Part shown: piece after piece, positions 6,130 to 22,931 of the stretch
How positions within the stretch are numbered: the stretch's first letter is position 1
How the letters are laid out: each line of letters starts with the position of its first letter
Notes under the pieces: generated by a model
Seen by the model: the letters and a program-made list of their open reading frames with translations, nothing else
Told to the model about the DNA's origin: nothing
The model's database searches: none
Assembly (NCBI GenBank): GCA_903930515.1
Contig: CAIYYW010000063.1
Span: forward strand, 1 to 26,418
Length of the DNA stretch: 26,418 bases
Direction of reading: 5' to 3'
Source of the DNA: an uncultured delta proteobacterium
GTDB lineage: Bacteria; RBG-13-61-14; DRUE01
Translations under genes and position numbers: made by a program

Positions 6130-7112
6130 GCGAGATGGAGAGAATTCAGGCGATGGTGGAAAAAGAGAGCCAGTTCGTGGACAAGCTCCTTGGTGAGGTG
6201 GGCAAGGTGATCGTGGGGCAGAGGCGGATGCTGGAGCGGGTATTGATCGGCCTGCTCTGCAAGGGACATATCCTGCTGGAGGGCGTTCCCGGCCTGGCCA
6301 AGACCCTGACCATCAAGACCTTTTGCGATTGCATCCGGGTGAAATTCCAGCGCATCCAGTTCACTCCCGATCTCCTGCCCGCGGACATCATCGGCACCTT
6401 GATCTACGACCAGAAAACCGGGAACTTCATCCCCAAGAAAGGGCCGATCTTCCATAATTTGATCCTGGCCGATGAAATCAACCGCGCCCCGGCCAAAGTC
6501 CAGAGCGCGCTTTTGGAAGCGATGCAGGAGCGGCAGGTCACCATCGGCGACCAAACCTATAAATTGGAGGAGCCGTTCCTGGTGCTGGCCACCCAGAACC
6601 CGATTGAGCATGAAGGCACCTATCCCCTGCCGGAGGCTCAGGTGGACCGGTTTATGCTCAAGATTTTGGTGCCATATCCGAAGAAGGACGAGGAGCGCGA
6701 GATTATGGAGCGGATGACCGGGGTGGAAATCCCGAAGGCGGACGCGGTGATCAGTTCGGAGGAGTTGATGAAGACGCGGGAGGTGGTGAACCAGATCTAT
6801 CTTGATCCCAAGATCAAGGATTACATCATCAACCTGGTCTTTGCCAGCCGGAACCCCGCCGAGGCCGGCCTGAAGGACCTGGAAGGACTAATCTCCTGGG
6901 GGGCGTCTCCGCGCGCCAGCATCTACCTCAACCTGGCAAGTCGCGCACACGCTTTCCTAAGACACCGCGGTTATGTCACGCCCGAGGATATTAAGTCCAT
7001 CGGCCCGGAGGTGCTCAGGCACCGGATCCTTTTAAGCTACGAAGCGGAAGCCGAGGAGATAAGCAGTGATGAAGTGGTTAAGAGAATATTTGACAAGATT
7101 GAAGTCCCCTGA
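6126..7112 (+). CDS. moxR: MoxR-family AAA+ ATPase
   Basis: A 328-residue AAA+ ATPase of the MoxR branch. Visible motifs are Walker A GVPGLAKT (53-60), Walker B NLILADE (111-117), and sensor-1 TQN (156-158), followed by PLPEAQVDRF and the C-terminal lid helices with SPRAS. MoxR proteins act as ATP-driven chaperone-like machines that work with VWA-domain partners in maturation or activation of target complexes, often at the membrane. It is cytoplasmic and has no extra domain. It is coupled to the preceding gene by ATGA, and its 3' end overlaps the DUF58 gene by 44 bases. The pairing with DUF58 and two VWA membrane proteins downstream is the classical MoxR-Bat arrangement. Confidence 0.95.
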   Translation: MSEMERIQAMVEKESQFVDKLLGEVGKVIVGQRRMLERVLIGLLCKGHILLEGVPGLAKTLTIKTFCDCIRVKFQRIQFTPDLLPADIIGTLIYDQKTGNFIPKKGPIFHNLILADEINRAPAKVQSALLEAMQERQVTIGDQTYKLEEPFLVLATQNPIEHEGTYPLPEAQVDRFMLKILVPYPKKDEEREIMERMTGVEIPKADAVISSEELMKTREVVNQIYLDPKIKDYIINLVFASRNPAEAGLKDLEGLISWGASPRASIYLNLASRAHAFLRHRGYVTPEDIKSIGPEVLRHRILLSYEAEAEEISSDEVVKRIFDKIEVP

Positions 7113-8025
7113 GCCTCCGCGGGAAGCGGAAGAGCGGGAATCCGAATCGCTTCGCGAACTGCTCAAGCGGGTGCGCAAGATTGAAATCTCCACCCGCAAG
7201 GCGGTCACCGAGGTGTTCGCCGGGGAGTACCACAGCGTGTTCAAGGGACGCGGAATCGAGTTCCTGGAAGTGCGGGAATACTATCCCGGGGACGAGGTCC
7301 GGACCATTGACTGGAATGTCACCGCCCGGATCGGATCGCCTTTCGTGAAGGTTTTTGCCGAGGAGCGCGAGTTGACCGTGATGATCCTGGTGGACGCCTC
7401 AAGTTCGCTCCGGTTCGGAACCGTGAGCAAGATCAAGGCCGAACTCGCCGCGGAGCTTTCCGCCTTGTTCGCCTTTTCCGCGATCAAGAACAACGACCGG
7501 GTCGGCCTGATTATTTTCACCGACCGGATTGAGCGCTACCTCCCTCCCCGCAAAGGCTCCCAGAACGGGCTCCGCCTGATCCGGGAAATCCTCGGGTTCA
7601 AGCCCGAGCGCAAAGCCACCGACCTGGGCCTGGCCCTGGACTTTTTGTTCCGGGTGCAAAGAAGGAAAGCCGTGGTGTTCCTGATCTCAGACTTCCTCGC
7701 CGAGGGCTACGAGGAAAAATTGAAAGTGGCCCGCAAGAGATACGACCTGATCGCGCTCAGCCTGAACGATCCGCGCGAGAAGGAGATCCCCTCGCTCGGC
7801 CTGGTGGAATTGGAGGATGTGGAGACCGGCGAGACCATGCTGGTGGACAGCGGAGACCCGCTGGTTCGGGAACATTTCGCCCAGGCCTTTGCCGGCAAGC
7901 GCAAGAAGCAGGCCGACACCTTCCGCAAGGCCGAAGTGGACTCAATCCAGATTTACACCGGAGAAAATTACGAGCCGAGCCTGGTCAGGTTTTTCAAGGA
8001 GCGCGAACGGAGGGTTGGAAGATGA
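7069..8025 (+). CDS. DUF58 (VWA-like) protein of the Bat operon
   Basis: A 318-residue soluble DUF58 protein. The family signature is clear: FAGEYHSVFKGRGIEF, then REYYPGDEVRTIDWNVTAR, and a VWA-like segment ILVDASSSLRFG whose DxSxS motif (DASSS) could bind metal. DUF58 proteins are regular partners of MoxR ATPases. Start choice: GTG at 7066 and ATG at 7069 are adjacent, with AGGAG at 7054-7058, 7 or 10 bases upstream; I took the ATG, and the difference is one residue. The start lies 44 bases inside moxR, so translation is probably coupled. Its own stop overlaps the next start by 4 bases (ATGA). Confidence 0.92.
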   Translation: MKWLREYLTRLKSPEPPREAEERESESLRELLKRVRKIEISTRKAVTEVFAGEYHSVFKGRGIEFLEVREYYPGDEVRTIDWNVTARIGSPFVKVFAEERELTVMILVDASSSLRFGTVSKIKAELAAELSALFAFSAIKNNDRVGLIIFTDRIERYLPPRKGSQNGLRLIREILGFKPERKATDLGLALDFLFRVQRRKAVVFLISDFLAEGYEEKLKVARKRYDLIALSLNDPREKEIPSLGLVELEDVETGETMLVDSGDPLVREHFAQAFAGKRKKQADTFRKAEVDSIQIYTGENYEPSLVRFFKERERRVGR

Positions 8026-8972
8026 ATACGGTTCAAATGATGAAATGGGGAAAGGCCGCGGTCGCGATCATTATCCTGACCCCGCTGATCAACCTCGCCA
8101 TCCTCGGAGTCCTGCTCTGGTCCATCCTGGCGCCTAAAAAAGGGGACGATCGGGCCGAAATTCATCTGAGCCGGGCCGGGATTTATTCAGCTTCCGGGCT
8201 TTGGAAAAGCGCGGCCTCCGAATACCAGCAGGCCGCGGAATTGGCGCCAGGCGACCAGGCCATCGGTTTATGGCTCAAGGCCGGGGATATTTGTTATGAG
8301 CAAACGGAAGATTATGAATGTTCGGCCCGGAATTACCTGAACGCGAAAATATCGGGCAAGGAGTTCTCCAAGGATTCCGAAGCCGCGACCCGCCTGGTGG
8401 ATTCATTGAAGAAGCTGGGCAAGACCGAATCAGCTCAGGCCTGGCTCAACGACCTGACCGCGCTGACGCCGGAAACCGCCCAAGGCTCGACCGTGGTTGC
8501 CCGGATCGGCGAGCGCCAGATCACAATGGAGGAGTTGAAAAAATCCCTGGCCGCGGAGCAGGAAACGGTGAGGAACAATTTCTCCGGACCGGAGGGCATG
8601 CGTAAATACCTGGACAACTATCTTTTCACCAGCCTCTTATACCAGTCGGCCCTGGACGAAAACCTGCTCAATGACCGGGCCAAGGAGGATTTTGACCGGC
8701 TCAAGCGAAAATATATCGCCGAACTTTATTTCCGTCAGAAATTTTTGAGCCAGGAGTCAGTCACGGAAAAAGAAGTCAAAGAATATTACGATCAAAATAA
8801 AAATATGTTCAAGGACGCTTCGGGCAAACCCGAGGCTTTTGACCAGGCCAAAAAAGATGCGGAGTTCCGGCTGAAAGAAAACAAATTCAGCCGGCTCCGC
8901 AACGACTGGTTCAATGCCCAGGCCGAAAAACGAGGTCTATATATAAATGCGCAAGCCTTCGGCGCTCACTAG
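8022..8972 (+). CDS. TM-anchored TPR protein with SurA-like domain lacking the rotamase
   Basis: A 316-residue protein. An N-terminal TM helix (about 12-36) leaves the rest most likely in the periplasm. Residues 45-150 look like TPR helices (WKSAASEYQQAAELAPGD...). Residues about 157-262 resemble the N-terminal chaperone domain of SurA/PpiC/PrsA foldases: VVARIGERQITMEELKK, a helical block, then VTEKEVKEYYDQNKNMF, which in those proteins immediately precedes the parvulin domain. Here the parvulin domain is absent, and the sequence goes straight to the usual C-terminal closing helix (AFDQAKKDAEFRLKENKF...). It is therefore probably a holding chaperone or scaffold rather than an isomerase. It is coupled to its neighbours by a 4-base overlap upstream and a 26-base overlap downstream. 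Family assignment is by motif, not by alignment. Confidence 0.75.
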   Translation: MNTVQMMKWGKAAVAIIILTPLINLAILGVLLWSILAPKKGDDRAEIHLSRAGIYSASGLWKSAASEYQQAAELAPGDQAIGLWLKAGDICYEQTEDYECSARNYLNAKISGKEFSKDSEAATRLVDSLKKLGKTESAQAWLNDLTALTPETAQGSTVVARIGERQITMEELKKSLAAEQETVRNNFSGPEGMRKYLDNYLFTSLLYQSALDENLLNDRAKEDFDRLKRKYIAELYFRQKFLSQESVTEKEVKEYYDQNKNMFKDASGKPEAFDQAKKDAEFRLKENKFSRLRNDWFNAQAEKRGLYINAQAFGAH

Positions 8973-10047
8973 CGCCCTGATCTTCCTGATCCTGGCCGGA
9001 CCGGCATTTGCCCAGGTCCCAAGCCGGAACCCGGCTCAGCCGCCGTCCGCCCCGGCCGCGATTCAACCCGCGCCTCAGCCCGGAACCACCACGCTCCCTT
9101 TGGCCCCTCAACCCGGAGCGACCGTGCTTCAGGCGCCCTCCCAGCCCCCGGCTTTTTTCACCGGAAAGGCCCGGGTGAACTCCAGCGTGGACAAGCTGGT
9201 GATCAGCGTGGGCGAACTGATCGCCTATAAAATGGAAGTGGAATTGCCCCGTGGATACTCCGCGGCCATTCCCCCGCCCGGCGCCCAGCTCGGCCAGTTC
9301 CTGATCCGGAAATACGATTTCCCGGAGCCGGAAAAAAAGGATGACCGGGTGATCCAGAGGTTCAATTTCCAGATCACCGCTTACAATACCGAGGAGCTGA
9401 GCATACCGCCGGTGCCGGTGATCATCCGGAAAGACCGGCAGATGGTCAAGGTGATCCTGACCGAGGAGATCAAGATCAAGATCGCGCCGGTGACCGGCGC
9501 CGAGGATATGGAAATCAAGGATGTCAAGCCGCCTATGTCCGTGCCCTTTGAATACCGGCCCCTGCTCATCGCCGGGAGCATCATCGCCGGCCTGATCGCG
9601 CTCGCGATCGGGGGCATTTACGGATGGAGGAAATTGAGAGAGCCGACGCTGGAAATCCCGGTGCCGCTCCCGGAGCCGGAAGAGCTGGCGCTCAAGGAAC
9701 TGGCGGAACTGCTCGCGCTCAACCTTTTGGAAAAAGGAGAGCTGGACCGGTATTACACCAAACTAAGCGAGATCAGCCGGAGATACCTCGGACTCCGGTT
9801 CCGGATTTACGCCCTTGAGTTCACCACCCCGGAAATTACGGCGGCGCTCAAGGAAAAATACCTGGAGCATTTAACCTATCATTTGGTCCGGGAATTCCTG
9901 GAAGAATGCGACCTGGTCAAGTTCGCTAAATTCATCCCGGAGACCAAGGCTCAGGGACAAATCATTGAAAAAGCAAAACAGATTATAGGGCAGACCCGGC
10001 CGGTCGCGCCGATGGAGCCGAAATCATCGGCCGCGGGAGGGATATAA
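8947..10047 (+). CDS. Second BatD-like membrane-anchored protein
   Basis: A 366-residue protein with the same plan as the first gene of the operon: signal peptide (1-22, cleavage after AFA), Pro/Gln/Ala-rich linker (23-70), beta-rich periplasmic domain (about 72-195), TM helix (about 205-226), basic WRKLR, and a helical cytoplasmic tail (about 243-350) with ISRRYLGLRF...FTTPEI...CDLVKFAKF. The tail pattern matches that of the proteins at 5104 and 12794 at the level of spaced hydrophobic and FA residues. DUF4381/BatD-type proteins are usual in Bat operons. The start ATG at 8947 lies 26 bases inside the preceding gene, with an AGGT-containing site about 10 bases upstream, and gives a well-formed signal peptide. 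Its stop overlaps the BatA start (TAATG). Confidence 0.78.
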   Translation: MRKPSALTSALIFLILAGPAFAQVPSRNPAQPPSAPAAIQPAPQPGTTTLPLAPQPGATVLQAPSQPPAFFTGKARVNSSVDKLVISVGELIAYKMEVELPRGYSAAIPPPGAQLGQFLIRKYDFPEPEKKDDRVIQRFNFQITAYNTEELSIPPVPVIIRKDRQMVKVILTEEIKIKIAPVTGAEDMEIKDVKPPMSVPFEYRPLLIAGSIIAGLIALAIGGIYGWRKLREPTLEIPVPLPEPEELALKELAELLALNLLEKGELDRYYTKLSEISRRYLGLRFRIYALEFTTPEITAALKEKYLEHLTYHLVREFLEECDLVKFAKFIPETKAQGQIIEKAKQIIGQTRPVAPMEPKSSAAGGI

Positions 10048-11036
10048 TGTTAAGGTTCGCGGATCCCTGGTTCCTCTTCGCCCTCCTCGCCGGACCGATG
10101 CTCCTGTTCCTGTTCTATCGCTATCGGCCCGGACGCGCCAAGCTGAAATTTTCCGACCTGTCCCCATTGGCATCCTCGCCCAAAAGTTTTCGGGTAAAAA
10201 TCGCGGACCTCCCGGTCTGGCTGATCGCGGCCGCGCTTTGCCTGCTCTCGGTCGGCCTGGCCCGACCGCAATACGGCGAGAAGCGCGAGGAGATTTCCGG
10301 TCAGGGGGTTGACATGATCGTGGCGCTGGACACTTCCTGGTCTATGCGGGGCCGGGATTTTGAGCCCAAGAACCGGCTGGAAGTGGCCAAGCAGGTGGTG
10401 AAAGAATTCATCCTGAAGCGGCCCTACGACCGGATCGGGCTGGTGGTGTTCAGCGCCATCGCCTTCACCCATTCCCCGCTCACCACCGACCATCAGATCC
10501 TGTTGAACTTCGTGGACCGGGTGACCTTCTGCCGCAAGGAGCACGACGGCACCGCGATCGGGAACGCCATCGCCGTGTCCGCGGACCGGATCCGTAATTC
10601 CAAGGCCAAGTCCAAGGTGATCATCCTGGTCACGGACGGGGAGAACAACCGCGGGATTGACCCGCGCCAGGCCGCGGAAATCGCCAAGACCTTCAACATC
10701 AAGGTTTACCCGATCGGGATTTACAACCCCGCTGGTTTTATGCAGCCGGTGGACGACCTGATCTTCGGGACCCGTTATGTGGTGAGTATGCCCCAGGTGG
10801 ACGAGAGTATGATGAACCAGATCGGCGAGACCACGGGTGGAAAATATTTCCGCGCCGTGGACCCGCAGGCCCTGGAAAAGGTGTTCGCGGATATAGACAA
10901 ATTGGAAAAGAGCAAGGTGGAGGTCAAGAGATATTATCGCTACACCGAGCGGTTTACGGCCTGGGTGATCGCCGGCCTGGTCCTGATCCTGCTCGGACTA
11001 TCGCTCTCGGAAACATATCTGCGGAGGATTCCATAA
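10047..11036 (+). CDS. batA: BatA-like VWA membrane protein
   Basis: A 329-residue protein with the BatA/BatB plan: N-terminal FADPWFLFAL with a TM helix (about 8-24), a second TM helix (about 55-71), a VWA domain (about 90-290), and a C-terminal TM helix (about 305-322). The metal-ion-dependent adhesion site is complete: DTSWS (Asp95, Ser97, Ser99), Thr169 in HDGTAIG, and Asp197 in TDGEN. VWA domains of this type bind divalent metal and mediate protein contacts with MoxR partners. Bat proteins were named for Bacteroides aerotolerance, though the molecular role is not settled. It shares one base with the next start (TAATG). Confidence 0.92.
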   Translation: MLRFADPWFLFALLAGPMLLFLFYRYRPGRAKLKFSDLSPLASSPKSFRVKIADLPVWLIAAALCLLSVGLARPQYGEKREEISGQGVDMIVALDTSWSMRGRDFEPKNRLEVAKQVVKEFILKRPYDRIGLVVFSAIAFTHSPLTTDHQILLNFVDRVTFCRKEHDGTAIGNAIAVSADRIRNSKAKSKVIILVTDGENNRGIDPRQAAEIAKTFNIKVYPIGIYNPAGFMQPVDDLIFGTRYVVSMPQVDESMMNQIGETTGGKYFRAVDPQALEKVFADIDKLEKSKVEVKRYYRYTERFTAWVIAGLVLILLGLSLSETYLRRIP

Positions 11037-12043
11037 TGAGGTTCGCCGACCCGGAATATCTTTATGCCCTGCTGATCGTCCCGGTCCTGATCTTCTTCTG
11101 GATCGGCTCCAACCGCTCCCGGGCAACGGCGCTCAAAAGGTTTGGAAGCCCGGAGCTGATGGAAAAAATCGGGATGGGCCTGAGCCGGCAAAGGAGAATT
11201 TTTAAGCGGTCCCTGATCCTGATCGGCTTGATCCTGGCCGTACTCGCCCTGGCCCATCCCCAATGGGGGGCGCGAGTCACCCGGATCGAGCAGAAGGGTT
11301 TGGACATCGTGATCGCGATGGACACCAGCAAGAGCATGCTCGCCCAGGACATCAAGCCCAACCGCCTGGAAAAGGCCAAATATGAACTTTCCAAATTGAT
11401 TGACCTGCTCCAGGGGGACCGCCTGGGGGTGGTCGCCTTTGCCGGGACCGCCTTCACCCTCTGCCCGCTCACCCTCGACTACGCCGCGGCGCAATTATTT
11501 TTGGAAAGCATCACCACCGACATTGTCCCGGAACCGGGCACCTGCCTGGCCGACGCGATCCAAGCGAGCCTGGAAAATTTCAATGCCGCGGAGCGCAAAT
11601 ACAAGGTGATCCTGCTCCTGACCGACGGCGAGGACCACTGCAAGGAAATGGGACGGGACCCGGTCAAGGCCGCGGAAGAGGCCAAAAAGCAGGGCGCCGT
11701 GATCTACACCGTCGGGATCGGATCCGACTCCGGCAGCCCCATCCCGACCACCGATGACTCCGGGAACCTGGTCTATAAGCGCGACCAGGGCGGGGAAATC
11801 ATTGAAAGCCGGCTGGACCAGGATAGCCTGAAACAAATTGCGCTGGCCACGGAAGGAAAGTATTATCATTCCACGGCCGGGGAGTTGGAAGTGGAGAAAT
11901 TTTATCAGCAGATCAAGCAATTGGAGAAGAAAAAAATCGGGGAGCAACTCCAGGTGGAATACGAAGAACGGTTCCAGTATTTCCTCGCAGCCGCGATCCT
12001 CCTGCTTTTCGGGTCGGGATTGATCCCGGAGCGTAAAAGATGA
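11036..12043 (+). CDS. batB: BatB-like VWA membrane protein
   Basis: A 335-residue paralogue of the preceding gene with the same topology and the same motif spacing. FADPEYLYAL opens the first TM helix (about 8-23), a second TM follows (about 59-73), then the VWA domain, with MIDAS residues Asp96-Ser98-Ser100 (DTSKS), Thr169 in EPGTC and Asp197 in TDGED, and a final TM helix (about 315-330). The near-identical spacing suggests an old tandem duplication, as in other Bat operons, where BatA and BatB are thought to form a complex. Which paralogue is truly A or B is assigned by order only. It overlaps batC by 4 bases (ATGA). Confidence 0.92.
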   Translation: MRFADPEYLYALLIVPVLIFFWIGSNRSRATALKRFGSPELMEKIGMGLSRQRRIFKRSLILIGLILAVLALAHPQWGARVTRIEQKGLDIVIAMDTSKSMLAQDIKPNRLEKAKYELSKLIDLLQGDRLGVVAFAGTAFTLCPLTLDYAAAQLFLESITTDIVPEPGTCLADAIQASLENFNAAERKYKVILLLTDGEDHCKEMGRDPVKAAEEAKKQGAVIYTVGIGSDSGSPIPTTDDSGNLVYKRDQGGEIIESRLDQDSLKQIALATEGKYYHSTAGELEVEKFYQQIKQLEKKKIGEQLQVEYEERFQYFLAAAILLLFGSGLIPERKR

Positions 12044-12786
12044 AACAGAATCCGAAAATTTCAGGCCTGATCTTGATCGCCGCCCTCTCAATGGCCCTGG
12101 GCGGGGGGGTGTATGAAAAAACCAGCGAAGGCAACCAGCTCTGGCTTAAGGGCAAATACCAGGAGGCCTTTGCCAAATACACCGAGGCGATCAGCCAGGC
12201 CAAAGGCCCGGCCGAAACCCGGCTCCATTACAACCTGGCCGACTCGCTCTACAAGCAGCAGCAATATCAAGAGGCGATCAAGGAATTCGAGCCCGCGCTC
12301 GCAAGCCCCGACCAGAAGCTGAAGGAGAAAACTTATTACAACTCGGGCAACTGCTACTTCCGGATGGGGATCGCCCAGAAAAGCCTGGACCTGTTGAAAA
12401 AGGCCGCGGAAAATTACCAGAAGGCTTTGGAGATTGACCCGAACGACCAGGACGCCAAGCATAATTTGGAAGTGGTGAGGAGGCATATCAAGCTCCAGAG
12501 CCAGCAGCAGCCTCCCCAGCCCAACCCCCAGCAACAGCAGCAGGGCCAGGAACAGAAAAAAGACCAGCAGGCGCAGAACCAGCAAAAACAGCAGGAGCAG
12601 AAAATGGCGGAGCCGAATAAGAAAGGCGGGGAGCAGAAGCCCCAGGGGGGAGGACCTCAGCCCAAACAGTTGAGCAAGGAAGACGCGGAGCGAATCCTCA
12701 AATCACTTTCCGAGCAGGAAAAGGAAGAGTTGAAGAACCGGATGCAGGTTCAATCCATCAACCAGCCTTCGGGAAAAGATTGGTAA
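12040..12786 (+). CDS. batC: BatC-like TPR protein
   Basis: A 248-residue protein with an N-terminal signal sequence or anchor (about 1-25), then three or so TPR units (about 28-150: GNQLWLKGKYQEAFAKY, YNLADSLYKQQQYQEAIKEF, YNSGNCYFRMG, YQKALEIDPNDQDAKHN). A Gln/Pro/Lys-rich low-complexity stretch (about 150-213) follows, then a conserved-looking helical end (LSKEDAERILKSLSEQEKEE). This TPR plus Q-rich plan is typical of BatC, believed to act as an adaptor for BatA/BatB on the periplasmic side. The long Gln run is encoded mainly by CAG/CAA and may vary in length. The gene ends 7 bases before batD. Confidence 0.9.
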   Translation: MKQNPKISGLILIAALSMALGGGVYEKTSEGNQLWLKGKYQEAFAKYTEAISQAKGPAETRLHYNLADSLYKQQQYQEAIKEFEPALASPDQKLKEKTYYNSGNCYFRMGIAQKSLDLLKKAAENYQKALEIDPNDQDAKHNLEVVRRHIKLQSQQQPPQPNPQQQQQGQEQKKDQQAQNQQKQQEQKMAEPNKKGGEQKPQGGGPQPKQLSKEDAERILKSLSEQEKEELKNRMQVQSINQPSGKDW

Positions 12787-12793
12787 GCAAGGA

Positions 12794-14605
12794 ATGAGCC
12801 GGCCCGGCAAAAAAATTTCAACCGCCCTTTTCGCCGGCCTGATCCTGGTCGGGACAATGTCCCCGCTCGCCCTCTTCAGCCAGGCGGCTCCGGTCCTGTT
12901 CGCGCAGATGGACCAGACCCGTCTCCCGCTGGGAGGGAGGGCCGTGCTCACGGTTTCTTTGCAAGGAGAAAATATAGATGTAGGTTCCGGCTTGCAATTG
13001 CCCAACCTCAGCCCGTATTTCCGGCTGGAAAGCCAAAACGGCCCGAATATACGCACGGAAATGTCCATCATCAACGGCCGGATGACCAAGCAGACCAGCT
13101 GGCAGATGCAATATGCCCTGATCGCCTCCAAGGCCGGATCATTCACCATCCCCAGATTGACCTTCCAGAGCGGGGGCCGGATTTACTATTCCAACCCGAT
13201 CTCGGTGGAGATCACCGAGGCGAATGCCCCGGCCCCTTCCGGCCCGGTTACAGACAAGGGGTTCCTTCCTTCGGATGACCCGTATCTGAAGCTGGAGTTG
13301 GACCGGGATCAATACTATCCGGGACAGCAGATCCGCGCCGCCTGGTATTTGTATTACCAGGAGCCGTTCGGGCATTTGAGCCTGGGGATGAACCCGCCGC
13401 TCGCGGACTTCAACGCCCTGGAGTTGGAAACCGCTTCCCAGCTTTCGCCGGTTTTAAAAAACTTCCAGGGACAGAACTGGAATGTCGCTTTTGTCCGGAG
13501 CCTGGCCCTGTTTCCACTCCGAGCCGCCAAGATTAATATCGGAACTATGGAACTGCGGGTCCAGCGAGAGACCCGCCGGAGGGATTTCTTCGGGATGCCT
13601 ATGGTCCAGGAATATTCGGTCCGGTCCGAGCCGGTCTCGGTCACAGTGCAGCCGCTTCCCTCCGGAGCGCCCCCCGGCTTCACCGGGGCGGTGGGCTCTT
13701 TTCTCATCACCAGCCGTCTGTCCAAGACCGAAGTCCGCTCCGGCGAGAACCTCAACCTGGAAATAGAAATCCAGGGAGACGGCAATCCGGATTACATTCT
13801 GGAGCCGAAACTGGAACTGCCTCCCGCGTTTGAAATCTATCCGCCCGAGGTCAAGCTGGACAAGTCGGTGGAGGCCGGGGAATTGGTCTCGCATAAAAAA
13901 TTCAGCTATGTGGCGGTGCCTCGCCAGGCCGGAGAATATCAGATCCCGGAAGCGCAATTCATCTATTTTGATCCCGCGAGCAAAACCTACCAGGTCGCCA
14001 AAAGCGCTCCGATCCCGGTGAAAGTGTCGCCGGGACCGGGAATAACCGAAACCGGTCCCGGGGGTTCTCTCCCGGTATCCCGGACCGAAATAAAAACCGA
14101 CATCCGCTTCATCAAGTCCGCCCCGGCATCGCTCCCGGACCAAGGCCCGGGCGTGTTCGGCAAAAACTGGTTCTGGCTTTCGCACCTGGCCGGAATATTA
14201 CTGATCGGAGCCGCCTTCTGGTACCGATCTTATCAGACGCGGCTGGAATCCGACCCGGGATTCGCCCGCGGTCAAAAAGCCTTCCGCCAATTCAAAAAGC
14301 AGGCGAATCAAGCGGACCGCCTCGCCTCGGCCGAGGATTTCGCAGGGTTCAGTTCCGAGCTCAAGAAGGCCCTGCTGGAATATTTCGGGAACAAGTTCAA
14401 TCAAAGCCCCTGGGGCATTTTGGAGGAAGAGGCGGCGGAGATTATGAAAAAAGCCCGTCTCCCCGATCAGCTCTCGCGGGAATTCTCCAGCCTGCTCGCC
14501 GACCTGGGCCGGGCGCAGTATGCCGGCAAGGCCGAACTCGACCCGAACCTGCTGCTCCGCCGCGCCCGGCAATGGGCGGAGACGGTGGAAAAGGAATTGA
14601 AATGA
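12794..14605 (+). CDS. batD: BatD family protein (periplasmic domains, TM, cytoplasmic tail)
   Basis: A 603-residue protein of the BatD family: N-terminal signal sequence (about 1-31), several beta-rich periplasmic repeats (about 35-440; for example SLQGENIDVGSGLQLPNL and GRAVLTV segments), a TM helix (about 455-475) and a helical cytoplasmic tail (about 490-600). The tail carries LKKALLEYFGNKF and GRAQYAGKAELDPN, resembling the tails of the two smaller BatD-like proteins of this operon. BatD is a membrane-spanning partner of the VWA proteins. The ATG at 12794 has AAGGA directly adjacent, too close for an ideal ribosome binding site, so translation probably depends on coupling to batC. The stop overlaps batE by 4 bases. 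Confidence 0.9.
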   Translation: MSRPGKKISTALFAGLILVGTMSPLALFSQAAPVLFAQMDQTRLPLGGRAVLTVSLQGENIDVGSGLQLPNLSPYFRLESQNGPNIRTEMSIINGRMTKQTSWQMQYALIASKAGSFTIPRLTFQSGGRIYYSNPISVEITEANAPAPSGPVTDKGFLPSDDPYLKLELDRDQYYPGQQIRAAWYLYYQEPFGHLSLGMNPPLADFNALELETASQLSPVLKNFQGQNWNVAFVRSLALFPLRAAKINIGTMELRVQRETRRRDFFGMPMVQEYSVRSEPVSVTVQPLPSGAPPGFTGAVGSFLITSRLSKTEVRSGENLNLEIEIQGDGNPDYILEPKLELPPAFEIYPPEVKLDKSVEAGELVSHKKFSYVAVPRQAGEYQIPEAQFIYFDPASKTYQVAKSAPIPVKVSPGPGITETGPGGSLPVSRTEIKTDIRFIKSAPASLPDQGPGVFGKNWFWLSHLAGILLIGAAFWYRSYQTRLESDPGFARGQKAFRQFKKQANQADRLASAEDFAGFSSELKKALLEYFGNKFNQSPWGILEEEAAEIMKKARLPDQLSREFSSLLADLGRAQYAGKAELDPNLLLRRARQWAETVEKELK

Positions 14606-15378: not shown

Positions 15379-16251
15379 GTGAAGGTAAGGAAAGCGGTAT
15401 TTCCGGCCGCGGGTTTGGGCACCCGGTTTCTCCCGGCCAGCAAGGCCATCCCCAAGGAGATGATCCCGGTGGTGGACAAGCCGGTGATCCAATACATCGT
15501 GGAAGAGGCGGTCGCCAGCGGGGTGGAGCAGGTGATCTTCGTGACCGCCCAGGGGAAAAGCGCGATGGAGGATCATTTTGACAAGGCTTATGCGCTGGAA
15601 GATTTGCTTGACAAGCGGGGCAAACAAAAAATGCTCGGGGATTGCCGCGACCTTTGGACCAGGGTGGAAGTGGTGTCGGTGCGGCAGCACGAGCCGCTCG
15701 GACTGGGACACGCTTTTGCCTGCGCCCGGAATGTGGTGGGAGACGAGCCGTTCCTGGGGATGCTCCCGGACGACCTGGTGGACAACCCGGGATATCCCTG
15801 CGCGAAGCAACTGGTGGATGTTTATAACAAGTATCAGTGTTCGGTGGTTGCCCTGATGAAGACGCCGCGGGAGCTGATAGACAAATACGGGATGGTGGTG
15901 TCCAAGCCGGTTTCGGACAATGTGGTGCAGGTGTTTGACTGCGTGGAAAAGCCGAAACCGGAGGATGCGCCCAGCGACCTCGGGATCGTGGCGCGCTATC
16001 TGTTCACGCCGGAAATTTTCCAGGCGCTGTCCGAGACCAAACCCGGGGCGCAGGGCGAAATCCAGATCACGGACGCGATCGCGCGGCTGGCGCGGAAGGG
16101 CCGGGTGTATGGCTGCATTTTCAAGGGCGAGCGGTTCGACGCGGGCGACAAGCTCGGCTATCTCCAGGCCACCATCCATTACGGGCTCAAGCATCCGGAA
16201 CTGGGGGCTCAGTTCAAGGCCTGGCTGAAAAATCTGGTCCAAGGGATTTGA
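15379..16251 (+). CDS. galU: UTP--glucose-1-phosphate uridylyltransferase
   Basis: A 290-residue nucleotidyltransferase of the GalU family. It makes UDP-glucose and diphosphate from UTP and glucose-1-phosphate, supplying envelope polysaccharide and glycolipid synthesis. The N-terminal nucleotide-binding motif AAGLGTRFLPASKAIPKEM is complete, followed by VVDKPVIQYIVEEA, LGLGHAFACAR, and MLPDDLVDN, where the Asp pair would hold metal. The later FDCVEKPKPE and the closing GERFDAGDKLGYLQA are typical GalU sequences. It is cytoplasmic and of usual length. The start is GTG at 15379, with AAGGAGG (15365-15371) at good spacing. It is only 21 bases from batE, so co-transcription with the Bat genes is plausible. 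Confidence 0.95.
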   Translation: MKVRKAVFPAAGLGTRFLPASKAIPKEMIPVVDKPVIQYIVEEAVASGVEQVIFVTAQGKSAMEDHFDKAYALEDLLDKRGKQKMLGDCRDLWTRVEVVSVRQHEPLGLGHAFACARNVVGDEPFLGMLPDDLVDNPGYPCAKQLVDVYNKYQCSVVALMKTPRELIDKYGMVVSKPVSDNVVQVFDCVEKPKPEDAPSDLGIVARYLFTPEIFQALSETKPGAQGEIQITDAIARLARKGRVYGCIFKGERFDAGDKLGYLQATIHYGLKHPELGAQFKAWLKNLVQGI

Positions 16252-16297: not shown

Positions 16298-18046
16298 TTG
16301 AATAAAATTATTGTCGCGCAAACCGCGGGCTTTTGCATGGGCGTGCGCCGGGCGGTGAATCTGGTTCTGGAGCAGGTGGAACAGGCCCAAGAGCCGATCT
16401 ATACCATCGGACCGTTGATCCATAATCCCCAGGTGGTGGAACTGCTCCGGCAGAGGGGGGTGATTCCGGTGGAATCTCCCGCGAAGATCGAGCGAGGGAT
16501 GGCGGTGATCCGCTCCCACGGAGTCAGTCCCGCGGTCCGGAAAGAGCTTGAACTCAAGGGCCTTAAAATCATTGACGCCACCTGTCCGCGCGTGGCCCGC
16601 GTGCACCGGCTGGTGGAAAAATTCGGCCGGCAGGGATTCTTGATTGTGATCCTGGGCGATCCCGGACATTCGGAGGTGGAAGGCATCCTTGGTTTTGCCG
16701 GGGAAAATTCCATCGTGATCCGGAACCCGGAAGAGGTTGCGAATTTGCCGGAGACCGACCGGATCTTGCTGGTGGCGCAGACCACCCAGAGCCAGAAGCG
16801 GTTCGCGCTCGCCGGCGATGCGCTCCGGCAAAAATATTGCGGGTTGGCATCGGACCGGGTGCAGGTGATCAACACCATCTGCGATTCCACCGAGCGCCGG
16901 CAGGACGAGGTGAGCGAGCTGGCGCAGGGAGTGGACGCATTCGTGATCGTGGGCGGGAGGCAGAGCGCGAACACCAGGCGGCTTCAGGAGATCGCGGAAT
17001 CTTGCGGACGCAAGGCCTACCTGGTGGAGAGCGAGGAAGAGCTTTTGGTCGGCGCGCTGGAGCCGATGGGAAAAGTCGGCCTGACCGCGGGGGCGAGCAC
17101 GCCCAACTGGATGATCCGGAGGGTTTACGAGGAACTGCACCGGATCAGTCTCAAGAACCGCGCATTCCCGCTCCGGATTTTTTATCAACTGCTCCGCTCC
17201 ATCGGCATCCTGAATTTATATCTCGGCCTGGGAGGGGCCTTGCTCACCGCATTGGTCGGGATTTTGCTCTCCGGAAAAATCAATCCCTTTGCCGCCCTCG
17301 CCACTTTTTTTTATGTGTGGTCCATCCATAATTTCAACCTGGTTTCCCGGCCGCGGCTCCTGGAAGTGATCGAGCCGGCGCGCGGGAAATTTTTTCTCCA
17401 TCACCGGAAGGCGCTGGTTTACCTCAGTCTGCTGGGCCTGCTATCAGGCGGAATCTTTTCCTTCCTGATCAACCCCTGGGCGCTCCTGTTCTACGCCGGG
17501 CTCTCGATCCTGAGCCTGCTTTACCAGGCGCAATTCCGGCCCGCTTCCCAAGGGATGATTTTCCGGTTCCGCTCCCTGATGGACATCCCGGGTTCCAAGG
17601 ATCTTTTCAGCGCCCTGGCCTGGGCGGCGATGATCATCCTGGTGCCGCTTTCGGGCAAGCCCGGCTCGCATTCCTTCCGGGTCTGGCTCGGCTTCGTTTT
17701 GGTTTTCCTGTTCGTGCTCGCGAGGAGTATGGTCCAGGATTTCCGGGATCTCCAGGCCGACCGGATCGCCGGCGCCGAGAACCTTCCGACCTTGCTGGGC
17801 GCGAAAAGGAGTCGGATTATGATTCATTCTTTGCTCTCGCTCGCCGCGCTTATCCTCGGGCTAAGTTTGGTCCGGAGCTGGTTCAGCCTGCCCGGGGCGG
17901 GCTTGCTGGCCGGGCTGATCTGGCTCTGGCTCTGCGTCCCGTTCTTCACCCGCCGCCCGATCATCCAGGGACTGCGCGCGGAGCTGATGATAGATTTCAG
18001 TTTTATCCTGGCCGGGATCATCGGCCTGTTGATGAAAATATTTTAA
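16298..18046 (+). CDS. ispH: IspH fused to a UbiA-like prenyltransferase domain
   Basis: A 582-residue fusion. Residues 1-282 are 4-hydroxy-3-methylbut-2-enyl diphosphate reductase, the last MEP-pathway enzyme, which reduces HMBPP to IPP and DMAPP. The three [4Fe-4S] cysteines are present (Cys13 in GFCMG, Cys96 in DATCP, Cys195 in TICDST), as are His42, His74, His124, the HSEVEG Glu126, the Ser223/Asn225 pair and Ser267 in TAGAST. Residues about 295-582 form a UbiA-like membrane domain with seven to nine TM helices. The second Asp-rich motif is intact (DFRDLQADRIAG, Asp481/484/488), but the first motif, normally NDxxDxxxD, reads HNFNLVSRPR and lacks its aspartates. The start is TTG at 16298, with GGAGAC just upstream. 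No stop or frameshift separates the halves. The UbiA substrate is unknown. Confidence 0.88.
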   Translation: MNKIIVAQTAGFCMGVRRAVNLVLEQVEQAQEPIYTIGPLIHNPQVVELLRQRGVIPVESPAKIERGMAVIRSHGVSPAVRKELELKGLKIIDATCPRVARVHRLVEKFGRQGFLIVILGDPGHSEVEGILGFAGENSIVIRNPEEVANLPETDRILLVAQTTQSQKRFALAGDALRQKYCGLASDRVQVINTICDSTERRQDEVSELAQGVDAFVIVGGRQSANTRRLQEIAESCGRKAYLVESEEELLVGALEPMGKVGLTAGASTPNWMIRRVYEELHRISLKNRAFPLRIFYQLLRSIGILNLYLGLGGALLTALVGILLSGKINPFAALATFFYVWSIHNFNLVSRPRLLEVIEPARGKFFLHHRKALVYLSLLGLLSGGIFSFLINPWALLFYAGLSILSLLYQAQFRPASQGMIFRFRSLMDIPGSKDLFSALAWAAMIILVPLSGKPGSHSFRVWLGFVLVFLFVLARSMVQDFRDLQADRIAGAENLPTLLGAKRSRIMIHSLLSLAALILGLSLVRSWFSLPGAGLLAGLIWLWLCVPFFTRRPIIQGLRAELMIDFSFILAGIIGLLMKIF

Positions 18047-18973
18047 ATGGACCCGCTGACACATATCCTTTTCAACGCCGCCCTGGCCCGTTCGGAAATA
18101 ATCCCGGACAGCCGCCAGGTTCAGGCGGTGATGATCCTGGCCGGGATCGTGCCCGACCTGGACCTGGTCTGGCATAGCCGGGGCATTCCTGAATATTTTA
18201 TCCATCACCGGCGGGAATCCCATTCCCTGCCGGGACTGGCCCTGCTCAGCCTGCCCCTGCTCGCCCTGGCGAAATATCTCAGCCCCGGACTGAACTGGCC
18301 CCTGCTCTATGGCTGCGTCTGGGCCGGAATGCTCGGCCATATCTTTTTGGATTTCCTAACCGTGTACGGCGTCCCGCTCCTATTTCCCTGGAAAAAACGC
18401 TATTTCAACTTCGGCATCCTCTTCATCCTAGACCCCTGGTTGAATTTAATCCTGCTCCCGCCGGTCCTGGAAAAATTCGTCCCCTGGACCGGACCGTCCC
18501 CGGCCAGGATTTCCCTGCTGCTGGTTGGTTCTTATTTCGCCTTGCTCGCAATCCTGAAAAGTATCTCTCAATCCCGGGGCCCGAAAAGGATCTCGGAAAA
18601 ATTCCCCGGCCTGGGCCAGGCGCAAGTTTATTCCAGCCCGTTTCTGGCTCTCCCCTTTTCCTGGCTGATCCTGCTCAAGCATGAGCAAACCATTTATCGG
18701 ATGAGATACTCGCTTCTGTTCGGACCAGGCCCGATCGTGGCTTTCTCCGGACAAGACCCGGACCTGCTCCGGGGATATATTCAGAAAAGCCCCCTGCTCC
18801 GGGCCTTGATCGAATTCAGCAATTTCCTCCACTGGCAAATTCAACCCACCGCTTCCGGCAAAAAAATCATCGCCACCGACCTCCGCTTCAGCCAATACAA
18901 CCCCGGGTTCCGCGCCGAAGCCGAGTTTGATTCCGAAGAAAAACTGCGCGCGTCAAAATTCTACTTCTATTGA
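18047..18973 (+). CDS. YdjM/DUF457-type membrane metal-dependent hydrolase
   Basis: A 308-residue membrane protein of the DUF457 (YdjM/LexA-regulated) family, called metal-dependent hydrolases on the strength of conserved His and Asp residues. The signature is at the N-terminus: DPLTHILFNAALA, then GIVPDLDLVW and HHRRESHSLPG, followed by a GHIFLDFLTVYG-type motif (His and Asp) that would complete the metal site. Four to six TM helices are visible up to about residue 215; the C-terminal third (about 225-308) is soluble and is likely extramembrane. Members are often linked to lipid or envelope functions, but no reaction has been established to my knowledge. It begins on the base after the ispH-ubiA stop, so the two are almost certainly co-expressed. 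Confidence 0.8.
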   Translation: MDPLTHILFNAALARSEIIPDSRQVQAVMILAGIVPDLDLVWHSRGIPEYFIHHRRESHSLPGLALLSLPLLALAKYLSPGLNWPLLYGCVWAGMLGHIFLDFLTVYGVPLLFPWKKRYFNFGILFILDPWLNLILLPPVLEKFVPWTGPSPARISLLLVGSYFALLAILKSISQSRGPKRISEKFPGLGQAQVYSSPFLALPFSWLILLKHEQTIYRMRYSLLFGPGPIVAFSGQDPDLLRGYIQKSPLLRALIEFSNFLHWQIQPTASGKKIIATDLRFSQYNPGFRAEAEFDSEEKLRASKFYFY

Positions 18974-19048: not shown

Positions 19049-20677
19049 TTGAAGCGGGCGACAAAATATCTTTTGATCGGGATTGCCGCGGCCATCCTCT
19101 GGGCCGGATACGGCCTGATGATTGATTCCCGCTTTTATCTTTTTGAAGGCGGAAGCGCGCATTACCTGGTGATGGCGAAATCGCTCGCCCAGCACCACCG
19201 CTACTGGGAATATCATCTGCCCACGCCCGAGCCGCACATCAAGATCCCCCCCCTGCTCTCGCTGATGCTGGCGCCGATTTATTATTTCCTGGGTGTGGAT
19301 ATTCCGGCGATCAAAATTTTCTTCTGGCTCTGCCTAGTCGCGGCCAGCGCGATCGGGTATCGCTTGTTTTTGAAATTGACCGGGGACTGGAAACAGGCCC
19401 TGCTGATCATTTTCGCCGGCCTGCTCCTGCCCTTGAATTTTTCGCTGATGCAAAAGGTCGCCTCGGAAATTCCCTTCCTGGCCTTCAGCTATTTGTCCCT
19501 GCTTTTCCTGGTCAAGGCCGGCGAGGAAAAATTCTCTTTGCTCAAGGGGGTACTGGTCGGAACCCTGGTGGGCTTGAGTTGTTTGCTCAGGACCGCGGGT
19601 CTGGCGATGATTCTGGCATTTTTAATTTTCATCCTTGACGACCTGCTGCTGAACAAGTCCCGGAAATATCTTTCTCAGTATCTGATCATCCTGGTCATCT
19701 CCTCCGCGATCTTCTCTTCCTGGGCGGTCCGGAACCATCTGGTCAAGACCGAAACGCAAAAGGGATACTTCAATTTCATCCTGATGGACGCGGAACCCGG
19801 AAGCCTGGAACAGGGGATGAACGACCTCCAGCCCCCGCTCTGGACCGGGACTAAAACCATCACCCTTTCCGGGTTCGGGAAAAGGGTCGGTTATAACGCG
19901 CGCTTTTATTGGAACGCTATTGCCGGGCAGCGCCGCGGGGAAAAATCTTTTTATCTCTGGGCGATCCTGCTGCCCCTGGCCTTGCTGGGCCTGGTCGCGG
20001 GTTTGCGCAAAAATATGATCGTGAACGGCTGCGGCATTTTTTATATCCTCCAGATTCTGGCCTGGCATTTCACCGACGCCCGTTTTTTATCCCCGCTTTC
20101 CGGCCTGCTCTTCTTCTGGATCTTATCCGGCGCCGCCTGGCTGAAAGTAAGATTCAGGAGCCGGGCAATGATTTCCAGTTTGATTTACCCCCCGGCTTAT
20201 CTTTTGGTTTTGATTTCAGTTGCGCTATCCGCCGGCAACGACCATCAAATCTGGAAACACACCCGGCATCGGGTTTTTCCCAGGACCTATCAAGTCTCGC
20301 GACATTTTGAGATCGTGCCCTTGACCAGGGAGCGCGATTCCCTGGCGCAACTTTTGCTTTGGATCAAAGACCATCCCGAGCAGGACGCGCTCGTCGCCAC
20401 CATTGATCCCTACCTGGTGAATCTGGTGGCGGACCGGAAGGCCGCTTTTTTCCCGGCCACGGAAAACGATCGGGAGTTCTGGGAATATTTCAAGCAGAAT
20501 CAAATCCGATACCTGATGGTTGACGAAATGTATCAGGACCTGCAAGGCGGGGTGGTTCTGATGACGCAAGCCTATCTCCTGCCCGCGCTCAAGAATTGCC
20601 CGTATCATCTGGAAAAAGTCCGGCAAGTCCCCGGCTCGCAAACGATGTTATTATCAATCAGCTATGAGAAGAAATAA
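19049..20677 (+). CDS. GT39/ArnT-like membrane glycosyltransferase
   Basis: A 542-residue polytopic membrane protein resembling the GT39/ArnT/PMT group, which transfer sugars from polyprenyl-phosphate donors to lipids or proteins on the outer face of the inner membrane. The first TM helix (about 5-22) is followed by a periplasmic loop, FEGGSAHYLVMAKSLAQH, where the family has a conserved acidic residue (Glu30 region), then PEPHIKIPPLLSLMLAP, resembling the KPPL motif. Ten or so TM helices end near residue 400; the remainder is a soluble C-terminal domain. The loop has a single acidic residue where the family commonly has Asp-Glu, so catalysis is likely but not certain. The start is TTG at 19049 with a weak ribosome binding site; no better start preserves the first TM. 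The gene overlaps the next by 14 bases. Confidence 0.75.
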   Translation: MKRATKYLLIGIAAAILWAGYGLMIDSRFYLFEGGSAHYLVMAKSLAQHHRYWEYHLPTPEPHIKIPPLLSLMLAPIYYFLGVDIPAIKIFFWLCLVAASAIGYRLFLKLTGDWKQALLIIFAGLLLPLNFSLMQKVASEIPFLAFSYLSLLFLVKAGEEKFSLLKGVLVGTLVGLSCLLRTAGLAMILAFLIFILDDLLLNKSRKYLSQYLIILVISSAIFSSWAVRNHLVKTETQKGYFNFILMDAEPGSLEQGMNDLQPPLWTGTKTITLSGFGKRVGYNARFYWNAIAGQRRGEKSFYLWAILLPLALLGLVAGLRKNMIVNGCGIFYILQILAWHFTDARFLSPLSGLLFFWILSGAAWLKVRFRSRAMISSLIYPPAYLLVLISVALSAGNDHQIWKHTRHRVFPRTYQVSRHFEIVPLTRERDSLAQLLLWIKDHPEQDALVATIDPYLVNLVADRKAAFFPATENDREFWEYFKQNQIRYLMVDEMYQDLQGGVVLMTQAYLLPALKNCPYHLEKVRQVPGSQTMLLSISYEKK

Positions 20678-22931
20678 TCCGCAAAACAGGCTGATCCTGA
20701 TCCTGGCGGGCATCGCTTTCCTCGGGTTCTCGCCCGGAAGAAAAATCGGAGATGATTTCCTTCCGGCCCGGGGACAAATTCATTTGCTGGTGATCCTGGT
20801 CAATTTCCCTGAGCTTGCGCCCGCCGCGAGCGCGGAGGAAGTTGAGCGGATGATTTTTTCGCGCGGCGAAATCAAGAACGGCTCGGTCGCGGATTATTTC
20901 AGCCAGGTGTCCGGAGGCAAGGTTGAGATTTCCGGCCGGGTTTACGGATGGTTCCAGCTCCAGGAGCCCGAAGCATATTATGCCAACGCCCATTCCGGTC
21001 ATCAGCCGGAGGCGTATCCGAAGAACAGCGCCGGGGCGGCGGAAGAAGCGATTGAATTCGCGGACCAGGCCGGCGCGGATTTTTCAGGGTTTGACAGCAG
21101 CGGCGATGGCGCGGTGGATGGGCTGGTAATCCTTTTTGCCGGTCCCGGCGGTCAGGTGGGCAATAATAAGGATCGGCTCTGGCCCTGGCTGAGTTATTTG
21201 TCTATGGACGGGACCCGACCGGCGATCAAAGACGGCGTGAAGGTTGACCGATATCTCACGATCAGCGAACGATCTCCCAAGGGCGCGCTGAATTTTGTCC
21301 CCACCCTTTGCCACGAACTGGGGCACCTGTTCGGCCTGCCGGATTTGTTTGACTGGAACAATGACTCGTTCGGGATCGGAAGGTTCGGATTGATGGGATT
21401 AGGAAATTACGGGAACGGCAAGGCCTTCTGGCCCGAGGCTTGGACCCGATCATACCTGGGCTGGAGCGAGGTTCGGGAACTTTCCGCTTCGGGCAAATAT
21501 CAAATCGCTCCGGCGGAAAGTCGCGGAGAAATTTTCCGGATCAATACCCTCGCGCCGGAAGAATATTTTTTGCTGGAAAACCGGGAGCCGCTTGGAAACG
21601 ATCTGGGGTTGTTCGGAGAGGGATTGGCCGTCTATCATATTGACGAGCGAATCCTGACCGGGAATGATTTTCAATGCGTCGGGTATTGCCCGGATATGCA
21701 TTACCTGGTCTCAGTGGAACAGGCGGACGGCTTGAACCATTTGGAGCGGAGACAAAATAACGGCGACCCCGGAGATTTCTTCCCCGGATCCAGCCGGATT
21801 ACAAAATTCAATGACGCCACCGGCATCGGGCAAAATCATCTGGCCGGCGCTCACTCCCGGCTCTGGGACGGAGAACTTTCCGGAATCGCCCTGAGCGGGA
21901 TCAAATCAAAAAATGAACAACTATCCTTCAAGCTCAAGCTGAACCATCCCCAAAGCCCGGATCCGTTCACGCCTGAGCTTCGGCTTTATGATTTCAAGGT
22001 GATCGAGTCCGGCGAACCCGACGGCTTGCTCGGCGCCGGAGAAAAATTTGAGCTGGTCCCGACCATCTCCAACCAGGGCGCCAAGGCCGGCCGCAATAAC
22101 CTCCGCATAAAAGCAGAAGGCTTAAGAGTTGAAAAGGAAGAAATAGAAATTGCCGGAATAATAAAACCTGGGGAGAGAGTGGAGGTCTCGCCTGGATTTC
22201 ACCTTCAAGTCCCGGAATTCCCGGCTCAGGCAAAAGCAATCACGCTGGAAATTACCCTCCAGAGCAAAACCGAAGATTTCCAAAAAACTGAAAAGATCAA
22301 TCTTATTGTCGGCCTTCCCGAAATTATCCTGCTGATGGATGATGACGGACTCGGGATCAAAAAATATTATCAGAGCGCGCTCCAATCCGCGGGAGCGGTT
22401 TTCCATACTTTGGAAATCAAGGGTTCGCTTCCGAAGCCTGAATTCTTAAGCCAATTCAAAACCATCATCTGGACCACCGGGATCAGGGGAATGGACGGCA
22501 AACCCGCTTTGGATCAGGCCAGGCAGGAATTGATCGCATCGCTTCTGGATCAAGGGAAAAAGCTGATCCTGATCTCGCCCGGACTGAAGCTGGACCAATC
22601 CAACCCGCTCTCCCAAAAACTCGGAATCCTCAAGGCCGAACCCGGCTTCGGGGTCAAACTGATCAAGTCCGAAGCCAACCCCTCCCAACTGATCCCGCTC
22701 TCCTGGCTCTACTTCCCCGCCATCACCCCTTGCTCCATCCTCACCCCAATCCCCAAGCCCCAATCCCCAACCCCCGATCCCCAAATCCTTTTTAGAAATT
22801 TGCAGGGCGAGCCGATTGCAATTGTTTTTCACTCAGATCCAAACATAATATTCCTGCTTGCTTTCCCGTTGGAAACCGCGAATGAGAATCAAAGAAAAAC
22901 CATCATCAAAGAATTGGTCGGCGGGGAATAA
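20664..22931 (+). CDS. M6-family metalloprotease (immune-inhibitor-A-like)
   Basis: A 755-residue secreted or envelope zinc protease. The N-terminal hydrophobic segment (about 9-23) is a signal peptide. The catalytic domain (about 38-340) has the extended zinc motif HELGHLFGLPD (His217, Glu218, His221, Asp227) and a Met-turn, GLMGLGNYG (Met244). DSSGDGAVDG (144-153) looks like a calcium loop. After about 430 there is a beta-rich region, then a Rossmann-like domain beginning IILLMDDDGLG (about 552), of the kind often found at the C-terminus of M6 and other surface proteins. A Pro/Gln-rich insert (about 694-708) encoded by C-rich repeats interrupts that last domain. Targets are unknown. The start at 20664 overlaps the GT39 gene by 14 bases. 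Its stop lies one base from the convergent der gene. Confidence 0.85.
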   Translation: MRRNNPQNRLILILAGIAFLGFSPGRKIGDDFLPARGQIHLLVILVNFPELAPAASAEEVERMIFSRGEIKNGSVADYFSQVSGGKVEISGRVYGWFQLQEPEAYYANAHSGHQPEAYPKNSAGAAEEAIEFADQAGADFSGFDSSGDGAVDGLVILFAGPGGQVGNNKDRLWPWLSYLSMDGTRPAIKDGVKVDRYLTISERSPKGALNFVPTLCHELGHLFGLPDLFDWNNDSFGIGRFGLMGLGNYGNGKAFWPEAWTRSYLGWSEVRELSASGKYQIAPAESRGEIFRINTLAPEEYFLLENREPLGNDLGLFGEGLAVYHIDERILTGNDFQCVGYCPDMHYLVSVEQADGLNHLERRQNNGDPGDFFPGSSRITKFNDATGIGQNHLAGAHSRLWDGELSGIALSGIKSKNEQLSFKLKLNHPQSPDPFTPELRLYDFKVIESGEPDGLLGAGEKFELVPTISNQGAKAGRNNLRIKAEGLRVEKEEIEIAGIIKPGERVEVSPGFHLQVPEFPAQAKAITLEITLQSKTEDFQKTEKINLIVGLPEIILLMDDDGLGIKKYYQSALQSAGAVFHTLEIKGSLPKPEFLSQFKTIIWTTGIRGMDGKPALDQARQELIASLLDQGKKLILISPGLKLDQSNPLSQKLGILKAEPGFGVKLIKSEANPSQLIPLSWLYFPAITPCSILTPIPKPQSPTPDPQILFRNLQGEPIAIVFHSDPNIIFLLAFPLETANENQRKTIIKELVGGE
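22744..22788 (+). repeat. C-rich near-tandem repeat inside the protease gene
   Basis: Several CCCCAA-type units in a row (CCCCAAT, CCCCAAG, CCCCAAT, CCCCAAC, and CCCCAAAT) encode a short PxPxPxQ-rich run in the C-terminal domain of the M6 protease. The reading frame is kept. Composition is unlike the rest of the gene, so a slippage-prone insertion is likely. Confidence 0.7.

What the first reader, a model, noticed from the sequence alone, without database searches (positions are those of the whole stretch)
16298..18046. IspH fused to a UbiA-like domain with one degenerate Asp motif
The enzyme that releases IPP/DMAPP is fused to a membrane prenyltransferase fold. All IspH cluster and substrate residues are retained, and the second UbiA Asp motif is intact, but the first (NDxxD) is not. 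The membrane half may use an unusual substrate, bind diphosphate through one site only, or merely anchor IspH at the membrane near prenyl consumers. I cannot tell how widespread this fusion is.
Basis: partly seen in the sequence, partly recalled or inferred. Interest (0 to 1): 0.6.

Follow-up and report, generated by a model that had tools for sequence, protein, structure and literature searches.

The report
IspH fused to UbiA-like membrane domain
This is a real two-part bacterial protein in which the last enzyme of isoprenoid precursor synthesis is joined to a membrane prenyltransferase-like domain; the arrangement was described in 2015, but it proves to be more widespread than reported, and the pocket of its membrane half has lost metal-binding residues to differing degrees.

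Summary
ORF 16298-18046 (+, 582 aa) is a complete IspH joined in frame to a UbiA-fold membrane domain whose first Asp motif is degenerate and second intact. It is no assembly error: full-length fusions occur in 25 of 290 sampled genomes (21 families) and in named Sumerlaeota and Stahlbacteria/WOR-3 records. The architecture is known: Rao et al. 2015 (PMC4746011) described 47 IspH-UbiA proteins in sulfate reducers, function unknown. New here: the fusion is the only IspH in all 25 genomes; each has another UbiA; only 4 of 25 carry dsrA; fused IspHs and UbiA halves each cluster in trees; complete motif 1 survives in 2 of 34 fusions while Asp488 of motif 2 is invariant; the window lineage has Arg/Lys in place of the Mg-binding Asp72; the UbiA half is under purifying selection as strong as IspH's, strongest at the pocket mouth. 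Best reading: a membrane-held IspH whose UbiA half still binds a prenyl phosphate, doubtful as a canonical Mg-dependent transferase in this lineage. A feedback-sensor role, as in UBIAD1-HMGCR, is untested. New member of a known kind.

The parts
16298..18046 (+). Complete ispH-ubiA fusion gene, 582 aa, TTG start, stop included
   Evidence: full-length homologues
16298..17149 (+). IspH half (aa 1-284); [4Fe-4S] Cys13, Cys96, Cys195, Glu126, His42, His74, His124, Thr163
   Evidence: PF02401 1.9e-89; TIGR00216 over cut-off; Z 31.8 to E. coli IspH; residues invariant in 34 fusions
17165..18043 (+). UbiA-fold membrane half (aa 290-582)
   Evidence: PF01040; Z 19.6 to AfUbiA 4tq4, 263 residues
17336..17362 (+). 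Degenerate first Asp motif, aa 347-355 N-LVS-R-PRL-L (AfUbiA N68, D72, D76 equivalents = N, R, L)
   Evidence: profile alignment; residue counts
17570..17623 (+). Loop from R425 (RSLMDIPGSKDLF) to W442, signature of this UbiA clade, with conserved K434 and W442
   Evidence: K434 K/R in 33 of 34; W442 in 32 of 34
17747..17761 (+). Intact second Asp motif D484-x3-D488 (AfUbiA D198/D202 equivalents)
   Evidence: D488 34 of 34; D484 Asp in 27, Glu in 3
15379..16251 (+). galU, upstream neighbour on the same strand; not part of the fusion
   Evidence: TIGR01099 over cut-off
18047..18973 (+). YdjM-type membrane protein whose start directly follows the fusion's stop; linkage not conserved in other lineages

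Best explanation
The gene makes the cell's only IspH, which supplies all IPP and DMAPP of the MEP pathway, carried at the cytoplasmic face of the membrane by a C-terminal UbiA-fold domain of transmembrane helices. That domain belongs to one clade of UbiA-like proteins and is kept by selection for something more than anchoring: its pocket, with the second Asp motif, the first-motif Asn and a conserved lysine loop, most likely still binds a prenyl diphosphate or phosphate next to IspH. In the window's genus the ligand of the first Mg (AfUbiA D72) has become Arg or Lys, so canonical two-Mg prenyl transfer is doubtful there, and a fixed positive charge may stand in for Mg1. Shown: architecture, sole IspH, spread, residue pattern, selection. 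Inferred: membrane tethering in vivo, ligand binding, loss or change of catalysis. The acceptor, if there is one, is unknown.
For: Sole IspH in 25 of 25 fusion genomes, so the IspH half must work if the MEP pathway is used. UbiA fold in predicted models. Another UbiA in every fusion genome; in the window's genome one lies beside UbiD- and UbiX-like genes (read by eye), so the fused one need not make menaquinone. UbiA halves form one supported clade with two unfused proteins (100/99), and fused IspHs form a clade (97/91) with two unfused members. Purifying selection equal to IspH, stronger at the pocket mouth. D488 and G492 34 of 34, K434 basic in 33 of 34, W442 and R476 32 of 34, N347 29 of 34. 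In AfUbiA, N68, D72, D198 and D202 coordinate Mg; alanine at N68 or D72 abolishes GPP binding, at D198 or D202 only weakens it (PMC4106721).
Against: No assay exists; Rao et al. could not express full-length protein (PMC4746011). Conserved residues at the pocket mouth could also serve folding or contact with IspH. No model coordinates were available, so the distance between the two active sites was not measured. Neighbouring genes give no consistent functional link. The dN/dS estimate rests on one pair of genomes with nearly saturated silent sites.
Confidence: 0.5

Rival explanations
1. Anchor only: the UbiA half is a dead prenyltransferase that merely keeps IspH at the membrane, near the enzymes that consume IPP and DMAPP.
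For: Complete motif 1 in only 2 of 34 fusions; Asp72 equivalent replaced by Arg or Lys in the window's genus; a separate UbiA in every fusion genome. Rao et al. also proposed membrane localisation (PMC4746011).
Against: Motif 2 Asp488 and Gly492 invariant, K434, W442 and R476 nearly so; pocket-mouth segments more constrained than the rest of the domain. A pure anchor needs no such pocket.
Confidence: 0.27
2. Fully active prenyltransferase that uses IspH-derived prenyl diphosphates on an unidentified acceptor, as Rao et al. thought likely.
For: Most fusions (23 of 34) keep Asp or Glu at the D72 position, and motif 2 is kept. UBIAD1 is an active enzyme although its first motif is N102TYYDFSKG, without the third acidic residue (PMC9314443).
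Against: In the window's lineage D72 is Arg/Lys and D76 is Leu; the D72A change in AfUbiA abolishes GPP binding (PMC4106721). IspH makes C5 units, whereas UbiA enzymes mostly use longer chains.
Confidence: 0.13
3. Chance or assembly-made fusion of neighbouring genes.
For: The window comes from a fragmented genome assembly (401 contigs).
Against: Full-length fusions in one open frame in 25 genomes of 21 families and in named Sumerlaeota and Stahlbacteria/WOR-3 records; published family.
Confidence: 0.01

Closest known systems
IspH-UbiA 'Rosetta stone' fusions (Rao et al. 2015, PMC4746011)
   Same: Same domain order, UbiA half of unknown function, separate UbiA/MenA in the genome.
   Different: Reported as confined to sulfate-reducing anaerobes and as having two DXXXD motifs; here most carriers lack a dsrA over its cut-off (21 of 25) and the first motif is incomplete in 32 of 34 fusions.
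Archaeal UbiA prenyltransferases AfUbiA (4tq3, 4tq4) and ApUbiA (4od4, 4od5)
   Same: Fold (Z about 19) and second Asp motif.
   Different: They are free-standing and keep the first motif; the window has N, R, L at the N68, D72, D76 positions.
UBIAD1, bound to HMG-CoA reductase
   Same: UbiA-fold protein physically joined to a key reductase of isoprenoid precursor supply; its first motif also lacks the third acidic residue (N102TYYDFSKG).
   Different: Separate chain, human, mevalonate pathway; keeps the D72 equivalent, is enzymatically active and senses GGPP (PMC9314443).
IspH-RPS1 fusions
   Same: C-terminal extension on IspH in anaerobes (PMC4746011).
   Different: The partner is ribosomal protein S1, not a membrane domain.

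Membership tests
IspH (LytB), 4-hydroxy-3-methylbut-2-enyl diphosphate reductase | Family profile over cut-off and three cluster cysteines | tested here: met
   PF02401 1.9e-89; TIGR00216 283.4 bits over 187.85; Cys13, Cys96, Cys195
IspH (LytB), 4-hydroxy-3-methylbut-2-enyl diphosphate reductase | Reduces HMBPP to IPP and DMAPP | not testable with these tools
   Needs an enzyme assay; supported indirectly by being the only IspH in the genome
UbiA superfamily | UbiA fold | tested here: met
   PF01040 over cut-off
UbiA superfamily | First Asp-rich motif NDxxDxxxD | tested here: not met
   N347, R351, L355
UbiA superfamily | Second Asp-rich motif DxxxD | tested here: met
   D484, D488
UbiA superfamily | Mg-dependent transfer of a prenyl chain | not testable with these tools
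   No assay; published expression attempts of relatives failed
IspH-UbiA fusion family of Rao et al. 2015 | N-terminal IspH and C-terminal UbiA domain in one chain | tested here: met
IspH-UbiA fusion family of Rao et al. 2015 | Two DXXXD motifs in the UbiA half (reported, not used by the authors as a criterion) | tested here: not met
   Only the second is present in the window
IspH-UbiA fusion family of Rao et al. 2015 | Host is a sulfate reducer (reported, not used by the authors as a criterion) | tested here: inconclusive
   No dsrA match in the window's genome, but the genome is 93% complete
CDD PT_UbiA_5 | CDD subfamily assignment | not tested
   CDD is not among the tools; the name is from PMC4746011

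The most novel reading that the evidence does not exclude
The UbiA half is a built-in sensor: it binds a prenyl (di)phosphate in its part-degenerate pocket and passes the signal to IspH, giving bacteria a one-chain feedback control of isoprenoid supply comparable to UBIAD1 acting on HMG-CoA reductase.
Probability: 0.12. Interest if true: 0.75.

Novelty: new member of a known kind. Interest (0 to 1): 0.35.

Why it matters
The fusion has been known since 2015 without a function. The present data widen its host range beyond sulfate reducers, show that it is the cell's sole IspH wherever it was checked, and define which pocket residues are kept and which are lost. That makes the three readings (anchor, enzyme, sensor) separable by mutating a few named positions in proteins from branches that keep or lack the first Mg ligand.

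Tried and rejected
Operon context as a clue: neighbours of 31 fusion loci share no conserved family beyond close relatives; immediate neighbours are unrelated housekeeping or regulatory genes. Link to aroA: the fusion of G005 directly follows an EPSP synthase gene and the unfused relative of G081 directly precedes one; only two cases, in opposite order, so not used. Viral contigs: no relative found. Sequencing-error fusion: rejected. Menaquinone enzyme: disfavoured, as another UbiA beside UbiD/UbiX-like genes is present. Proof of several independent losses of D72: the tree asks for 4 changes (bootstrap 3 to 6), but the firmly supported branches alone do not force more than one.

Full report
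The gene. The + strand frame 16298-18046 is open for 582 codons from a TTG start. Pfam finds LYTB (IspH) at residues 4-280 with E 1.9e-89 and UbiA at 369-550 with E 9.9e-13, the latter covering profile positions 66-232, so that the stretch with the first Asp motif is left out of the match. NCBIfam's IspH model TIGR00216 is passed well over its cut-off.

Not an artefact. A sister genome of the same genus has the same protein at 70% identity, one of the same order at 47%, and further genomes at 34-37%. A scan of named genome records returned the same-genus 'delta proteobacterium', Sumerlaeota and Stahlbacteria/WOR-3 members, all with both halves in one frame. With a profile of 17 fusions, 25 of 290 sampled genomes, including the window's own, gave a full-length match; by my count these fall in 21 families. 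The sample is spread over the domain but unnamed, so phyla cannot be counted.

Prior work. Rao et al. [quoted passage not shown] full-length expression failed. The architecture is therefore not new. Later full-text searches found no further study of it in the library.

What this survey adds. (1) In all 25 fusion genomes the fusion is the only IspH. (2) Every one has at least one other UbiA, in G034 only as a fragment at a contig end. In the window's genome the others are one beside UbiD- and UbiX-like genes, one resembling the decaprenyl-phosphate phosphoribosyltransferase type, and one divergent protein (these assignments are by eye). (3) dsrA over its cut-off is found in only 4 of the 25 (G002, G033, G064, G205) and not in the window's genome, so the fusion does not look confined to sulfate reducers, with the caution that many of these are incomplete assemblies. 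(4) In a tree of UbiA domains the fused halves and two unfused proteins (G081, G063) form one clade, support 100/99, apart from 21 other UbiAs. Fused IspHs form a clade, 97/91, with two unfused members inside. One ancient fusion with a few later separations is the simplest account; the trees do not prove a single origin, and several rows have long branches.

The pocket. Profile-profile alignment with 18 canonical UbiAs (probability 99.7%) places N347, R351 and L355 against N, D, D of NDxxDxxxD. Over 34 fusions the Asn is kept in 29, the D72 position is Asp in 17 and Glu in 6, the D76 position is Asp in 9, and all three are intact in only 2 (L009, L012). The second motif is better kept: D484 is Asp in 27 and Glu in 3, D488 and G492 are invariant; K434 is basic in 33, W442 and R476 are kept in 32. 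The 18 canonical UbiAs all keep the first motif. In AfUbiA, N68, D72, D198 and D202 coordinate the two Mg ions while D76 does not do so directly; alanine at N68 or D72 abolishes GPP binding, and at D198 or D202 weakens it (PMC4106721). Human UBIAD1 is active with N102TYYDFSKG, also lacking the third acidic residue (PMC9314443). So loss of D76, common in the family, need not stop catalysis; loss of D72, seen in 11 of 34 including the window (Arg) and its sister (Lys), is more serious. The tree suggests about four changes at the D72 position, but firm branches do not force more than one.

Selection. Between the window and its sister genome, dN and dS are 0.213 and 0.911 for IspH, 0.235 and 1.085 for the UbiA half, and 0.162 and 1.12 for the three pocket-mouth segments against 0.268 and 1.072 for the rest of that half. 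One pair only, with nearly saturated silent sites.

Structure. The full-length AlphaFold2 model (12 sequences, pLDDT 86.8, pTM 0.80) aligns with E. coli IspH at Z 31.8 and with ApUbiA at Z 19.4 over 258 residues. The UbiA half alone (pLDDT 85.2, pTM 0.85) gives Z 19.6 to AfUbiA over 263 residues, above the soluble prenyl synthases at about 16; Foldseek's first 14 matches are all UbiA-family structures. Residues 413-425 are modelled poorly.

Context. galU lies upstream, a YdjM-type membrane protein starts directly at the fusion's stop, then a glycosyltransferase-like gene and an M6 protease. The sister genome shares the upstream gene, the glycosyltransferase-like gene and the protease but no recognisable YdjM. 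No neighbour is conserved across lineages, so context does not tell the function.

Judgement. The protein belongs to the published IspH-UbiA kind by architecture. Two further features its authors reported (two DXXXD motifs, sulfate-reducing host) do not hold here, which suggests that their description was too narrow rather than that this is something else. As to mechanism, I favour a membrane-held IspH whose UbiA half keeps a ligand-binding pocket (0.5), over a bare anchor (0.27) and a full canonical transferase (0.13). The sensor reading, by analogy with UBIAD1 and HMG-CoA reductase, is a special case of the first and is untested.

Noticed in passing
window 6126-14605: A MoxR-type AAA ATPase, DUF58, two BatA/VWA proteins, TPR and BatD genes in a row: an aerotolerance-type (Bat) operon upstream of galU and the fusion.
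   Followed up: no
window 20664-22931: Protein with an M6-family metalloprotease domain (TIGR03296 over cut-off), conserved downstream of the fusion in the sister genome (L036).
   Followed up: no
window 19049-20677: 542-aa protein with a weak match to the LA_3751/LA_3752 putative glycosyltransferase family and no Pfam match.
   Followed up: partly
L018:724-2331: A different IspH fusion: about 230 aa that read like a CMP kinase (by eye, not scanned) in front of IspH, with no S1 domain in the frame.
   Followed up: partly
L131:7384-8247 and L111: Two unfused relatives of the fused UbiA half, also with a degenerate first motif; the one in G081 lies between sdhCAB-type genes and an EPSP synthase gene.
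   Followed up: partly
L004:1381-2295: A further UbiA-like protein in the window's own genome with an unusual second motif (NGVEHFEQDLKGG).
   Followed up: no
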